Source: Anaerolineaceae bacterium
GTDB taxonomy: Bacteria; Chloroflexota; Anaerolineae; Aggregatilineales; Phototrophicaceae
Assembly (NCBI GenBank): GCA_002699585.1
Contig: PABP01000038.1
Span: 682,001 to 746,000, forward strand
Reading direction: 5' to 3'
Length of the DNA: 64,000 nt
Part shown: positions 51,607 to 55,935 of the stretch, in pieces
How the letters are laid out: each line of letters begins with the position of its first letter
Numbering within the stretch: the first letter of the stretch is position 1
Program-made: the position numbers and the translations under genes
The notes under the pieces: generated by a model
Database searches by the model: none
The model's input: the letters and a program-made list of their open reading frames with translations, nothing else
What the model was told of the DNA's origin: nothing

Positions 51607-51939
51607 ATGGATACCACTTATCGCAAAGACATTAAAGAACAATTGGACGAGGTTTTGCTGGGGATGCCCGGTGTCAAGGATGGCAAAGCATTCGGCTACC
51701 CGGCATTCAAAATTGGGCGCAAGATTTTCTGTTTCGTAGGAAACGAAGGTATTTCCATCAAGCTGCCGGAAGCCCGTGTTAATGAGTTAGTCGGTTCCCA
51801 AGACAGCATGAGCGTCTTTTCGCCAGATGAGGGCACGGTCTGGAAATCCTGGTTGTCCATCCAGCTACCCGATGCTGAAGATTACGCTGAGCATGTCGCC
51901 CTGTACCAGGAATCGATCCAGTTCGTGGGCGAGGGTTAA
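51607..51939 (+). CDS. TfoX/YjbR (MmcQ)-like protein
   Basis: This 110-residue soluble protein has a start preceded by GAGAGG. Its plan (KDIKEQLDEVLLGMPGVKDG, then AFGYPAFKIGRKIFCFVGNE, ISIKLPEARVNELV) resembles the TfoX N-terminal/YjbR fold of small DNA-binding-like proteins. The function is not established. Control by the LexA-like dyad suggests that it could respond to DNA damage. The TIR gene follows after a 98-nt gap with competing hairpins. Confidence 0.65.
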   Translation: MDTTYRKDIKEQLDEVLLGMPGVKDGKAFGYPAFKIGRKIFCFVGNEGISIKLPEARVNELVGSQDSMSVFSPDEGTVWKSWLSIQLPDAEDYAEHVALYQESIQFVGEG

Positions 51940-52037: not shown

Positions 52038-52673
52038 ATGAGCGACGGTGGCGAATACTTTGATGCTGATGAAATGGACCCGATTGAGGGCTACTGTCTG
52101 CATTGTCGGGAACATATTGAAATTGAATCTGCCACTGCAGTCTGGACGCGCCGAGGCCAACCGGCAACACGCGGCGTTTGTCCGATTTGCGGTGGCATTG
52201 TCTTTAGAATGGGCAAGACCGAGTTGCACGATGAGCGCAATCGGCCGGATGCCATCGTTCTCGAAGGTGAAAGCAGCGGGCGCAGTCGTCCTAAGCTGGC
52301 ACGCGACACGGTGTATATCAATTATGCCGCTGCCGATGAAGAAAGCGCACAGCGTATCGCCAGCGATTTAGAAAAAAGCGGTCTAGCGGTCTGGTTACAT
52401 GATCACGACCCGGAAGATGTGAATTGGTCCAGCGGTGTGCATCCGGCGCTGAAAGAGTGCTCGCGCATGGTGTTTTTGCTTTCCGGCAATGGCAATGGCG
52501 AAGATCAGGTGCAGGCCGCCTGGGAATTCTTTAAGCAGGCCCGTAAGCCGATTGTCATCGCCCAATTAGAAGCCATCGACCCGCCCGACCCCATCCGACG
52601 CAGCCCACGCTACGATGTTTCCGGGGATTATAAAAGCGCGTTCCGGCAGATGCTGGGCGCACTCAGCGCTTAA
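52038..52673 (+). CDS. DUF5679 zinc-ribbon plus TIR-domain protein
   Basis: This 211-residue soluble protein has an N-terminal zinc ribbon of the DUF5679 type (YCLHCREHIEI, then GVCPICGGIVFRMG; four cysteines). A C-terminal TIR domain follows: RDTVYINYAAADEESAQRIA as the first strand-helix, GLAVWLHDHDPEDVNW at the BB-loop, CSRMVFLLSGN and AAWEFFKQARKPIVIAQLEA. The Glu of the WEF segment sits where NAD-hydrolysing TIRs have their catalytic Glu, so activity is possible but not shown. It heads a two-gene unit with the MazG-like gene 2 nt downstream. Confidence 0.85.
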   Translation: MSDGGEYFDADEMDPIEGYCLHCREHIEIESATAVWTRRGQPATRGVCPICGGIVFRMGKTELHDERNRPDAIVLEGESSGRSRPKLARDTVYINYAAADEESAQRIASDLEKSGLAVWLHDHDPEDVNWSSGVHPALKECSRMVFLLSGNGNGEDQVQAAWEFFKQARKPIVIAQLEAIDPPDPIRRSPRYDVSGDYKSAFRQMLGALSA

Positions 52674-52675
52674 CC

Positions 52676-53002
52676 ATGTCCAGAATCGTCTATAACAAGC
52701 TGGTACGGGATCGCATCCCTGAGATCATCACCGCACAGGGTAAACCCCATGAAGTCGCTGTCGTCAGCGAGGCAGACTACCGGGCGCTGTTGTTCGATAA
52801 GCTGCAAGAAGAAGCGGCTGAATTGGCCACAGGTGATAATTTAGCCGAAGAACTGGCCGATATTTACGAAGTGCTGGATGCGATCATCGCCGCCAACGGC
52901 CTGTCAGCGGATGAGATCGCCACCGTAAAAGCCCAAAAACGGGAAAAGCGCGGTGGTTTTACCAAGCGAATTAAGCTGCTATGGGTCGATGACCCGGATT
53001 AG
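52676..53002 (+). CDS. MazG-like nucleotide pyrophosphohydrolase
   Basis: This 108-residue protein begins YNKLVRDRIPEIITAQGK, the mark of the small all-alpha NTP-PPase group. The metal-binding EEAAELATGDNLAEELADIY carries the paired E-x-x-E and E-x-x-D residues. Members hydrolyse non-canonical or abundant nucleoside triphosphates to monophosphates, as house-cleaning or in stress or immune signalling. It is 2 nt after the TIR gene, so it is surely co-translated. Its stop overlaps the convergent kinase-NACHT stop by 4 nt. The exact nucleotide is unknown. Confidence 0.88.
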   Translation: MSRIVYNKLVRDRIPEIITAQGKPHEVAVVSEADYRALLFDKLQEEAAELATGDNLAEELADIYEVLDAIIAANGLSADEIATVKAQKREKRGGFTKRIKLLWVDDPD

Positions 53003-55935
53003 TCAGCGTGTTTGGACGCAAAGTATTCCAGCAGGTAGCGATGCACGAAAATATAGCCACCGCCGACTTTCCGCAGCAGGATCAAGCGGGTGGCGTGGTC
53101 CAGGAAGTGGGCATAATTGCGCGGGGTCGCACCTGTTTGCCATAAGATGCGCCGCAAGATCACATGCTGGATGACCGTATAGCCACCATAGATCAGCGCA
53201 CCAACCGCCCCAAATGGCAGCGCGGTGACGATCACTTGCATGATGCCAAAGGTCCAACTGCTGACGGGTACGGTCGATGCCATCAGCAGAATGCCGAAAC
53301 TAACGGCCACGAACGCCCCCAGGCGCAGGGAATTGCCCAGGCTGCGCCAGATGCCCTCATTGGGCCGCGTTGTCTGGCCGACCACGTTACTGGTCAGCCC
53401 GGTCAGGTAGCCAGCGGTCACAATGCCGATCAATCCGCCAAGCACAATGCCCAGTACCTGCTCCCCTATTGTGACATCGGGACGGGCAAAGACAATGCGA
53501 TTGAGAACCGATGTCACCGCCCCGGCAGGGATCACGGCAATGACCATTATCGGTTTGACGTTTTTGCGAACAAAACGCACGCTTTCCACAGGCTGAATAT
53601 GCATCGGGCGATGTTGACCCCGGCGCAGCAACCACAGCGCAAAGCCAAAGGCCAGCGTATAGATCACCAGTGCGCCCGGAATGCGCATCACGAATTGGCC
53701 TAGCTCCTGGTCAAGGCCGCCTTCCAGCGCCACAGCCAGACTAAAGACCACCCCAATCAACACTGCCGAGGCGATAAATCGAATCAGGCGTGTGCCGAGG
53801 ACAGCGCCCCAGGTGACGCCAGCAACGGCCCAGGCGGCGCCTTTCATCCAGGCGGGCGCACCGGGCGGCGCAAGCGGCGTCGTAACCGCTCTCGGAACGC
53901 CCCATATCAACGCCCAGATGATCACCATCACCCGAAACAGCGCATTACGGTAGCGCCTCTGCTGAGCTTCATGCAGCCAGGTGGGTTGCAAGTTCTCTAT
54001 CTGGAAGACCGTTTGGGCCTGGCTGACCATCTGCCCTGCCAACCACCCTAGGTAATGCTCAACTTGTTGGCGCGTATAGGGCGCATCAGCAGGCTGACGC
54101 GCCAGCATACGATCCACGTAAATATCAAACAGATGGGCACGCTGAGCTTCCGGGCTATCGAAGTGCGGCAGCGAATTTTGGGTGATGTCACGATAGGCCA
54201 GCACCATGATATTGAGCATCAAAGGCGAACGACTAAGTTCAGCCAGATTGTTATCAGCATCCAGTTGCCTGCGCAGGGTCGCTAATGAAGGACCAAATTG
54301 CGATAGATAAACATCAACCTGCTGGCTAGTAAGCGGTTGCAAGACGATAGCCCCATTCAGCAGCAAGCGATTGGTCAGGGCCTCGTAGTCGACTGTGCGG
54401 CTGCAAACCACCACATCGACGAAGCCGTGATCCTGGCGATAGGCATTAATCGCTTCGACGCAGGCATCCCGGTAATCCAACGCGACCTCATCCAGGCCAT
54501 CGAGCAAAAGCAGCAGTTCATCGTGCTTGACCCAACGACGGGCTATCGCACGCGGCACCTGATATTTGCTGGATAGCTCATCCACCAGCCAGTCGGCAAT
54601 CGGCTGCGGATTTTGCCCCCAGGATGACAGATTAAGCACCACTGGGATCGCATGGCGTTGGTCGCGCTCAGCACGGGCCAGCAACGCCTGTGTGAGTTCC
54701 AGCAAGGTGGTCGTCTTGCCGCTGCCAGGATCGCCCAGAATGAGTAGCTTGCCATTCAGGCGATCGAACATCTGCAAAATAGGCGTGCCGGGAACAACGG
54801 TCCGGTCCTCGGTGCCGGGGCGGCGCAAGACCGCGCCCCAGGGGTTGGTGACAGCGTCCATTTGGGGGGCCATGCCCAATTCGATCAGGGCTGCACCGTG
54901 TAATGACTGCTCTAAGACGCCCTCGATCCAGAAAGCCTGTACATTTTGCAGCATGGAACGCCGATTGCGCCCGGTCGAAGTCAGGCTGCCACTCACCTGG
55001 GCGATACGCTGCGTGCGCGTATCAATCATGATGTCAGCGGTTTCAAGATGACGGGCGACGGGCAGAATGGGCGCAGGTCGGCTGATTTGCGAGATGTCCG
55101 TCAGCGCGTCGATGAAAGCCTGGGCATCGTCATAACGGCGCTTGGGCTGCTTATCGGTCGCCTTCTGAATGATGTCGTCTAGGACTTCTGGCAGATCAGG
55201 GCGCAGCGTCTGCAAGCTCGGTACAGGATCGCGCACCTGATGAATAATCAGGTCATTGATGCCAGCGTCACCATAGGGATGCTGGCCAGCCAGCATTTCG
55301 TAAAGCACGAGGCCCAGGGCATAAATATCGGACTGCTGAGTGAGTACTTGGCCCTGGAGCTGCTCCGGCGAGAGATAGGCGAAGGTGCCGACTAATTCGT
55401 CGCTATCTGTTTCAGCACCATCCATCTGCTGAATGCGCATAGCAACGCCGAAATCAGTCAGGTAAGCGTTGGAGCGCTCATCGAGCAGGACATTAGCTGG
55501 CTTGAAATCACGGTGAATCACCTGAGCGGCATGGGCGCTGACGAAAGCTTCGCCAATCTGGGTCAGCAGGCGGGTCGTCTGGGCCAGGGAGAGCGCACCG
55601 TGATCTTGCAGCAGTTGGCGCAGATTGCCGCCGCGCAAGTAGCGCATCACCAGATAGGCGCCGCTGTCATCCTGCCAGTAATCATATAGCGGCGTGATAT
55701 GCGGGTGCTCTAATTGGGCAACCAGGCGGGCTTCGTCGGCAAAACGCGCTTTGAATTCATCCGACTGGGCGTACTCCGGCAGAATGACCTTGATGGCCAC
55801 ATCGCGGTCTACAGCCAACTGACGCGCACGATAGACCATCCCATAGCCACCAACGCCAATGCGCTCGTGGAAGGTATAACCGCGTATCGTTTGGCCGATG
55901 AGTCTGTACATGGATACGTCGTTTGGATGGATCAA
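52999..55935 (-). CDS. Ser/Thr kinase-NACHT NTPase fusion with C-terminal membrane domain
   Basis: This 978-residue multidomain protein has an N-terminal Hanks-type kinase (about residues 16-285) with a complete active site: GVGGYGMVYRA, VAIKVIL (Lys), HRDFKPANVLL (about residue 139) and LTDFGVAM. The NACHT-type NTPase follows (about 395-560) with Walker A ILGDPGSGKTTTLLEL and Walker B ELLLLLDGLDEVALD. A helical region leads to a C-terminal domain of many hydrophobic segments (about residues 670-900), ending with GGYIFVHRYLLEYFASK, a tail common to bacterial STAND/NACHT proteins. It could be a membrane-tethered sensor using phosphorylation and NTP switching. An alternative start, ATG 55911 (MYRLIGQTIRG), is also possible. 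Confidence 0.9.
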   Translation of the reverse strand: MIHPNDVSMYRLIGQTIRGYTFHERIGVGGYGMVYRARQLAVDRDVAIKVILPEYAQSDEFKARFADEARLVAQLEHPHITPLYDYWQDDSGAYLVMRYLRGGNLRQLLQDHGALSLAQTTRLLTQIGEAFVSAHAAQVIHRDFKPANVLLDERSNAYLTDFGVAMRIQQMDGAETDSDELVGTFAYLSPEQLQGQVLTQQSDIYALGLVLYEMLAGQHPYGDAGINDLIIHQVRDPVPSLQTLRPDLPEVLDDIIQKATDKQPKRRYDDAQAFIDALTDISQISRPAPILPVARHLETADIMIDTRTQRIAQVSGSLTSTGRNRRSMLQNVQAFWIEGVLEQSLHGAALIELGMAPQMDAVTNPWGAVLRRPGTEDRTVVPGTPILQMFDRLNGKLLILGDPGSGKTTTLLELTQALLARAERDQRHAIPVVLNLSSWGQNPQPIADWLVDELSSKYQVPRAIARRWVKHDELLLLLDGLDEVALDYRDACVEAINAYRQDHGFVDVVVCSRTVDYEALTNRLLLNGAIVLQPLTSQQVDVYLSQFGPSLATLRRQLDADNNLAELSRSPLMLNIMVLAYRDITQNSLPHFDSPEAQRAHLFDIYVDRMLARQPADAPYTRQQVEHYLGWLAGQMVSQAQTVFQIENLQPTWLHEAQQRRYRNALFRVMVIIWALIWGVPRAVTTPLAPPGAPAWMKGAAWAVAGVTWGAVLGTRLIRFIASAVLIGVVFSLAVALEGGLDQELGQFVMRIPGALVIYTLAFGFALWLLRRGQHRPMHIQPVESVRFVRKNVKPIMVIAVIPAGAVTSVLNRIVFARPDVTIGEQVLGIVLGGLIGIVTAGYLTGLTSNVVGQTTRPNEGIWRSLGNSLRLGAFVAVSFGILLMASTVPVSSWTFGIMQVIVTALPFGAVGALIYGGYTVIQHVILRRILWQTGATPRNYAHFLDHATRLILLRKVGGGYIFVHRYLLEYFASKHAD

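What the first reader, a model, noticed from the sequence alone, without database searches (positions are those of the whole stretch)
52038..55935. Candidate immune-type locus: TIR + MazG-like pair converging on a kinase-NACHT protein
Within 4 kb lie a zinc-ribbon TIR protein, a pyrophosphohydrolase translated 2 nt behind it, and a convergent gene fusing an intact Hanks-type kinase to an intact NACHT NTPase and a large membrane domain. TIR and NACHT modules are established parts of bacterial antiphage and cell-death signalling, and MazG-like enzymes change nucleotide pools. What is seen are the domains, motifs and gene order. That they act together is inference; the two sides are on opposite strands and could be unrelated.
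Basis: partly seen in the sequence, partly recalled or inferred. Interest (0 to 1): 0.72.

Follow-up and report, generated by a model that had tools for sequence, protein, structure and literature searches.

The report
Unrelated neighbours; one membrane NLR-like kinase
The three genes are real but do not form one conserved immune system: a TIR protein that looks enzyme-dead and a stray nucleotide-cleaning enzyme happen to lie next to a membrane-embedded, NLR-like kinase switch of a kind that bacteria build with interchangeable heads.

Summary
In detail: a DUF5679-TIR gene, a MazG/PRA-PH-like gene 2 nt behind it, and a convergent Hanks kinase-NACHT-membrane gene whose stop overlaps the MazG stop. 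The proposed three-gene system is not supported. The TIR gene has matches in 45 of 98 family genomes and 7 of 7 sampled same-order genomes outside the family. Its catalytic Glu position is not Glu in 62 of 63 orthologues, so NADase activity is unlikely. The MazG-like gene is sporadic (5 of 98) and missing from the syntenic locus of the sister genome, where the TIR and kinase-NACHT stops lie 3 bp apart. The TIR/kinase-NACHT neighbourhood was seen only in the two genomes of this genus. The one recurrent TIR neighbour is a YjbR-like gene (16 of 63 loci). The part worth keeping is the kinase-NACHT protein: its model matches NLRC4/NLRP3 (Z 23), and a polytopic membrane domain appears inserted in the winged-helix domain, before an invariant His (15 of 15 chosen relatives). 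The same core carries TIR, kinase and, judged by eye, HTH-like heads in Chloroflexota. I read it as a membrane-sensing NLR-like switch with kinase output; that is inference.

The parts
51607..51939 (+). YjbR-like gene upstream of the TIR gene; the only recurrent neighbour of the TIR family
   Evidence: Pfam YjbR 3.3e-6, 28.1 bits, under the cut-off of 30.1; homologue in 16 of 63 other loci, upstream on the same strand in all 15 that could be oriented, 27 to 1579 bp or overlapping the longest TIR ORF
52038..52673 (+). DUF5679 zinc ribbon + TIR protein, 211 aa
   Evidence: Pfam; predicted TIR fold matches SARM1, Z 16.1, rmsd 2.2, 121 residues; matches in 45 of 98 family genomes, own genome included, two partial
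52092..52211 (+). DUF5679 zinc ribbon (C20-x2-C23 ... C48-x2-C51)
   Evidence: the same Pfam domain is at the N-terminus of topoisomerase I in the same genome
52311..52655 (+). TIR domain
52518..52520 (+). codon of Ala161, aligned with the Glu kept by 9 of 10 TIR-NACHT proteins of relatives
52676..53002 (+). MazG/PRA-PH-like all-alpha NTP pyrophosphohydrolase, 108 aa; missing from the syntenic locus of the sister genome
   Evidence: the plasmid and phage rows shown are annotated as nucleoside triphosphate or house-cleaning pyrophosphatases
52999..55935 (-). Hanks kinase-NACHT-membrane protein; likely true start ATG at 55911
55129..55878 (-). Ser/Thr protein kinase domain, motifs intact
54472..54744 (-). 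NACHT domain (Pfam match)
53104..53985 (-). polytopic membrane region that appears inserted in the winged-helix domain (residues about 651-944)
53041..53043 (-). His965 of the tail motif YIFVHRYLLEYFA, after the membrane insert
   Evidence: H in 15 of 15 rows of A3

Best explanation
Three separately distributed genes sit side by side; they are not one system. (1) The convergent gene encodes a membrane-embedded NLR-like switch: Hanks kinase output, NACHT nucleotide switch, and a winged-helix domain split by a polytopic membrane region so that its conserved His comes after the membrane segment. Most likely the membrane part senses an envelope disturbance (for example phage entry), moves the winged helix, releases ADP, lets the protein oligomerise and brings kinase domains together to phosphorylate targets. 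Shown: domains, motifs, fold match, head-swapping. Inferred: the split (from ranges and conservation), sensing, oligomerisation, output. (2) The DUF5679-TIR protein is an order-specific protein whose TIR has lost the catalytic Glu; most likely a non-enzymatic TIR adaptor or scaffold with a nucleic-acid- or protein-binding zinc ribbon (inferred). (3) The MazG-like gene is a house-cleaning nucleotide pyrophosphohydrolase that most simply arrived between the two in this lineage (inferred).
For: Sister genome G059 is collinear with the window from about 43.6 to 57.5 kb but has no MazG-like gene; the TIR and kinase-NACHT ORFs end 3 bp apart there. MazG-like: 5 of 98 family and 10 of 298 class genomes; in its other loci (four of 5.5-14 kb, the rest up to 1.5 kb each side) there is no TIR match and one weak NACHT match, 24.8% identity, E 5e-6. 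TIR: 45 of 98 family genomes; 7 of 7 same-order genomes outside the family, 4 of 14 family genomes in that sample, and outside the order only zinc-ribbon matches, at E 1e-20. Glu absent at position 161 in 62 of 63, kept at the aligned place in 9 of 10 TIR-NACHT proteins. NACHT-to-end model pLDDT 82: NLRC4 Z 23.3 (rmsd 5.4, 343 residues), NLRP3 Z 22.8, with the last model residue aligned. In 15 of 15 chosen relatives 4 to 10 membrane-like stretches lie between the two halves, none before, His kept; in 15 of 28 phylum relatives where the tail motif was found, 6 to 10 such stretches precede it. Kinase and TIR heads on the same core.
Against: TIR and kinase-NACHT are neighbours in both genomes held of the genus, so a genus-level link is not excluded. 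All four genomes found with a kinase-headed NACHT also have the TIR gene, though 45 of 98 have it anyway. The 2-nt gap suggests that TIR and MazG are co-transcribed here. MazG base composition is ordinary, so loss in G059 is possible. Foldseek's own superpositions of the NACHT model are poor over the whole length (TM-score 0.21-0.35, rmsd 12-31 among the top 25). The tail motif was not found by a simple pattern in many relatives: missing in 13 of 28 rows and 22 of 32 (rows include cut and duplicate entries). No experiment bears on sensing or kinase steps, and no tree was built.
Confidence: 0.6

Rival explanations
1. A genus-specific two- or three-gene immune module: the kinase-NACHT senses infection, and the TIR and MazG-like proteins act as effector or nucleotide-pool modulators.
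For: Convergent neighbours in both genomes of the genus; overlapping stops; a genome rich in such domains: 30 TIR_2 matches and 8 NACHT matches, 5 of the latter over cut-off.
Against: No such neighbourhood in 61 named TIR loci; in G052 and G062 the kinase-headed NACHT gene lies on another contig than the TIR gene; MazG-like gene absent at the locus in the sister genome; TIR lacks the catalytic Glu.
Confidence: 0.12
2. The DUF5679-TIR protein is still an active enzyme using another residue, or processes a substrate other than NAD.
For: TIR fold intact; W119, W130, HPAL (135-138) and W162 are strongly conserved.
Against: Position aligned with Glu is Ala, Gly, Ser, Val, Thr or Asn in 62 of 63; all examined prokaryotic TIRs required the Glu for NADase function (PMC7282519, passage seen).
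Confidence: 0.15
3. The kinase-NACHT protein is a developmental or transcriptional STAND regulator rather than an immune receptor.
For: Several relatives begin with HTH-like or SARP-like sequence (judged by eye, not by a domain search); Hanks kinases serve many non-immune roles (recalled).
Against: TIR heads on the same core; patchy distribution (22 of 298 class and 24 of 301 phylum genomes at 1e-40, only 4 candidates scored per genome); NLR-like fold.
Confidence: 0.25

Closest known systems
Bacterial NACHT (bNACHT) antiphage proteins, e.g. bNACHT25 (PMC12169576, passages seen)
   Same: Central NACHT, effector at the N-terminus; tripartite STAND plan
   Different: Here the N-terminal domain is a Hanks kinase and a polytopic membrane region appears inserted in the winged helix. 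'Transmembrane' has 0 occurrences in that paper's main text.
STAND NTPase conflict systems with swapped effectors (PMC8195603, section 7 read)
   Same: STAND core, NACHT among others, with interchangeable N-terminal effectors including TIR and S/T/Y kinase
   Different: Those described there carry an FGS lectin-fold module; a membrane-split winged helix is not described in what I read
Animal NLRs NLRC4, NLRP3, NOD2
   Same: NACHT to winged-helix fold (Z 20-23)
   Different: The aligned stretch of these structures is about 360-420 residues without such an insert; other N- and C-terminal domains
SARM1, SPARTA and MyD88 TIR domains
   Same: TIR fold (Z about 13-16)
   Different: Here fused to a DUF5679 zinc ribbon; catalytic Glu absent. 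PMC7282519 (passages) says TLR4 and MyD88 TIRs have no NADase activity.
All-alpha NTP pyrophosphohydrolases (PRA-PH, MazG; COG4997 is recalled)
   Same: EExxE...ExxD pattern, PRA-PH profile and structure matches of the aligned group
   Different: The window protein itself is below Pfam's cut-off

Membership tests
STAND/NACHT NLR-like proteins | NACHT NTPase with intact Walker A and B | tested here: met
   Pfam NACHT 1.7e-8, over cut-off; GDPGSGKT and LLLLLDGLDE
STAND/NACHT NLR-like proteins | NBD-HD1-WHD fold | tested here: met
   NLRC4 Z 23.3, rmsd 5.4, 343 residues, on a pLDDT 82 model; Foldseek whole-length TM-scores are low
STAND/NACHT NLR-like proteins | nucleotide-dependent oligomerisation and effector activation | not testable with these tools
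   needs biochemistry
bNACHT antiphage | phage defence | not testable with these tools
   no assay; the PADLOC rows shown (best 25 of 38) cover the kinase
PD-T4-6 kinase defence | Ser/Thr kinase of that family | tested here: inconclusive
   kinase-domain match 1.3e-85, residues 15-288, but a general PknB model scores alike (9.8e-85, under its cut-off); the whole architecture differs
NADase TIR (SARM1, ThsB type) | catalytic Glu | tested here: not met
   62 of 63 orthologues lack it; the window has Ala
Thoeris | ThsB TIR with a ThsA neighbour | tested here: not met
   no Thoeris model at E 0.1 for the TIR protein (its only PADLOC hit is SAVED_TIR, 0.0092); immediate neighbours are YjbR-like, MazG-like and kinase-NACHT
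MazG/PRA-PH all-alpha NTP-PPase | EExxE...ExxD metal site (pattern recalled) | tested here: met
   invariant in 10 of 10 rows
MazG/PRA-PH all-alpha NTP-PPase | curated profile over cut-off | tested here: inconclusive
   window protein PRA-PH 14.5 bits against 21.3; 8 of 10 members match at E 0.1 or better, best 1.4e-6
vWA-MoxR ternary conflict systems | vWA and MoxR partners nearby | tested here: not met
   none among the 10 window proteins scanned between 49.7 and 60.3 kb; further away not scanned

The most novel reading that the evidence does not exclude
A family of bacterial NLR-like receptors in which a polytopic membrane domain is inserted into the winged-helix domain, so that the conserved WHD histidine is read out through the membrane. 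They would be modular envelope sensors of Chloroflexota (perhaps also of Cyanobacteria, where only the NACHT part was clearly matched) with interchangeable kinase, TIR or DNA-binding outputs; the kinase version is the one in this window.
Probability: 0.4. Interest if true: 0.78.

Novelty: new variant of a known kind. Interest (0 to 1): 0.45.

Why it matters
If the membrane-split winged helix is right, these proteins would couple a membrane event directly to the nucleotide-sensing part of an NLR-type switch, and a small set of mutants could test it. The DUF5679-TIR family would be a clade-wide bacterial TIR without the NADase residue, useful for asking whether bacteria use TIRs as plain adaptors as animals do. 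Rejecting the triad also keeps a false three-gene defence system from being annotated.

Tried and rejected
Triad as a system: rejected on distribution and synteny. NADase effector: rejected on the missing Glu. Filing the kinase-NACHT protein under PD-T4-6 or MADS: rejected because the rows shown match the kinase domain only. By sequence the MazG-like protein alone matched a TAL effector chain (E 4.8e-5) and the TIR protein matched ChREBP (E 0.019); I took both as chance, without a further test. The TIR profile found no PDB chain by sequence. The antisense ORF inside the TIR gene, clustered in 35 loci, was taken as a codon-usage artefact, not tested. Co-occurrence of DUF5679-TIR with many TIR domains: median 36 TIR_2 matches in 45 carriers against 8 in 53 others, but genome size differs (5.7 against 4.1 Mb) and the counts never exceed 39 (probably capped). 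Within 3-5 Mb, and leaving out 32 non-carriers of the largest genus, 18 against 10 (n 14 and 17, p 0.012, no correction for relatedness); with those put back the 49 non-carriers have median 8. Kept only as a hint. Base composition gave no foreign signal for MazG. Paper searches: DUF5679, 0 papers; NACHT with winged-helix, transmembrane helices, bacteria and inserted, 1 paper, on animal NLRP3; NACHT with Aggregatilineales, 0; others. The library is open-access only, so absence there is weak.

Full report
What is there. The window lies in a 6.7-Mb assembly of 42 contigs. The 62 named contigs with a relative of the TIR protein are nearly all titled Anaerolineae, Anaerolineales, Anaerolineaceae, Chloroflexi, Aggregatilineales or the like; one is titled Bacteroidetes. 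Aggregatilineales is an order of Anaerolineae, Chloroflexota. The TIR stop is followed after two bases by the MazG-like start, and the MazG-like and kinase-NACHT stops overlap. Relatives of the kinase-NACHT protein start near its ninth residue, so ATG at 55911 is the likelier start.

Do the three belong together? In 98 genomes of the family (own genome included) the TIR protein has matches in 45, two of them partial. The NACHT-to-end part has matches in 29 at 1e-10, but only the one other genome of the genus exceeds 70% identity over most of it. The MazG-like protein has matches in 5, one of them partial. The sister genome G059 is collinear with the window from about 43.6 to 57.5 kb, but the TIR and kinase-NACHT ORFs end 3 bp apart with no MazG-like gene between. 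I collected 62 loci in named contigs. With the window and G059, 63 gave a TIR ORF (L144 did not). Only the window has the MazG-like protein, and only the window and G059 the kinase-NACHT protein; ten other loci match its kinase domain only. Sixty of the 62 TIR loci other than the window have at least 1 kb downstream. The other MazG-like loci hold no TIR match and one weak NACHT match. So the triad is one genome's arrangement, and the pair is known from the two genomes of one genus.

What is the TIR protein? A search of 298 genomes of the class at 1e-20 finds full-length matches in 4 of 14 genomes of this family and in 7 of 7 genomes of other families of the order; outside the order only the zinc-ribbon part matches. 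In this genome the same DUF5679 ribbon sits at the N-terminus of topoisomerase I. The predicted TIR fold is clear: SARM1 Z 16.1, rmsd 2.2 over 121 residues, on a model of mean pLDDT 77. But the position aligned with the catalytic Glu is Ala in 52, Gly 4, Ser 3, Val 1, Thr 1, Asn 1 and Glu 1 of 63. Ten TIR domains fused to NACHT in relatives have Glu there in 9 cases and Gln in 1. PMC7282519 (passages) says that all examined prokaryotic TIRs require this Glu for NADase function and that TLR4 and MyD88 TIRs lack that activity. I therefore read the protein as a non-enzymatic adaptor, by inference. Its only recurrent neighbour is an upstream YjbR-like gene, in 16 of 63 other loci, on the same strand in all 15 that could be oriented. 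DUF5679 occurs in none of the papers searched.

What is the MazG-like protein? It has the invariant EExxE...ExxD residues; 8 of 10 aligned members match PRA-PH, and the alignment matches PRA-PH structures weakly by sequence (best E 0.0016). Homologues occur on 36 plasmid records (the 10 shown are annotated nucleoside triphosphate pyrophosphohydrolase) and 1 phage record (house-cleaning pyrophosphatase). It is in 10 of 298 class genomes. A lone housekeeping-type enzyme inserted here is the simplest account; loss in G059 is not excluded.

What is the kinase-NACHT protein? The kinase and NACHT motifs are intact. Its NACHT-to-end part was modelled with 14 relatives that I chose from the family hits (pLDDT 82). 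The best structural matches are NLRC4 (Z 23.3, rmsd 5.4, 343 aligned), NLRP3 and NOD2; the aligned range in the model runs from about residue 20 to its last residue, 679, while that in NLRC4 ends at 456 (that this is the end of the winged helix, and that a His there contacts ADP in NLRs, is recalled). Since only about half of the model aligns, the hydrophobic region of about 290 residues must fall inside the winged helix. Foldseek's whole-length superpositions are poor, as an insert would make them, but this is also a caution. In 15 of 15 rows the segment between the two halves is 219 to 442 residues long with 4 to 10 membrane-like stretches by a simple hydropathy scan, with none before it, and the tail keeps the His. 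In the phylum sample the tail motif was found in 15 of 28 rows, each with 6 to 10 such stretches before it, and not found in 13; in the class sample it was found in 10 of 32 rows, duplicates and cut entries included.

Heads. Among 30 ORFs from 29 family loci, 3 besides the window have the kinase motif and 10 have TIR; Pfam confirmed TIR in 4 of 4 and kinase in 2 of 2 that were scanned. In the class and phylum samples a pattern search found TIR in 3 of 32 and 1 of 28 rows and no kinase besides the window; many of the rest begin with HTH-like, membrane or other sequence, judged by eye. The core is patchy: 22 of 298 class and 24 of 301 phylum genomes at 1e-40, with 4 candidates scored per genome. 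Cyanobacterial plasmids encode the NACHT part (23 plasmid records, 14 of them Nostoc and 1 Streptomyces; only 2 cover 80% or more of the query; one is annotated CHAT domain-containing).

Mechanism and comparison. The most likely working is a membrane-embedded STAND switch with kinase output. STAND NTPases with interchangeable TIR and S/T/Y-kinase effectors are already described (PMC8195603 section 7, read; related passages of PMC7159879 and PMC10907252), and bNACHT proteins defend against phages (PMC12169576, passages). So the kind is known; the membrane-split winged helix is not described in what my open-access searches showed. Calling it an immune receptor rests on architecture only.

Verdict. 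Observation confirmed; three-gene immune locus not supported; one component is an unusual NLR-like variant worth follow-up.

Noticed in passing
51607-51939 and 16 of 63 other TIR loci: A YjbR-like gene lies upstream of the DUF5679-TIR gene on the same strand; the only recurrent linkage of this TIR family.
   Followed up: partly
L154 226-2547 (-): Topoisomerase I of this genome carries the same DUF5679 zinc ribbon at its N-terminus, before the Toprim domain.
   Followed up: partly
L207, L208, L209: TIR-headed NACHT genes in three genomes of another family of the order; the search reports one TAA inside the open frame.
   Followed up: no
L173 1-2439: A NACHT relative whose start matches DUF4062; a 2026 preprint (PMC13174449, listing and start of abstract only) reports DUF4062 as TIR-like NADases.
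   Followed up: no
whole genome G000: 30 TIR_2 matches and 8 NACHT matches (5 over cut-off) in one genome: a large TIR/NACHT repertoire.
   Followed up: partly
L135: The single TIR orthologue (of 63) with Glu at the catalytic position; may be a reversion or chance.
   Followed up: no
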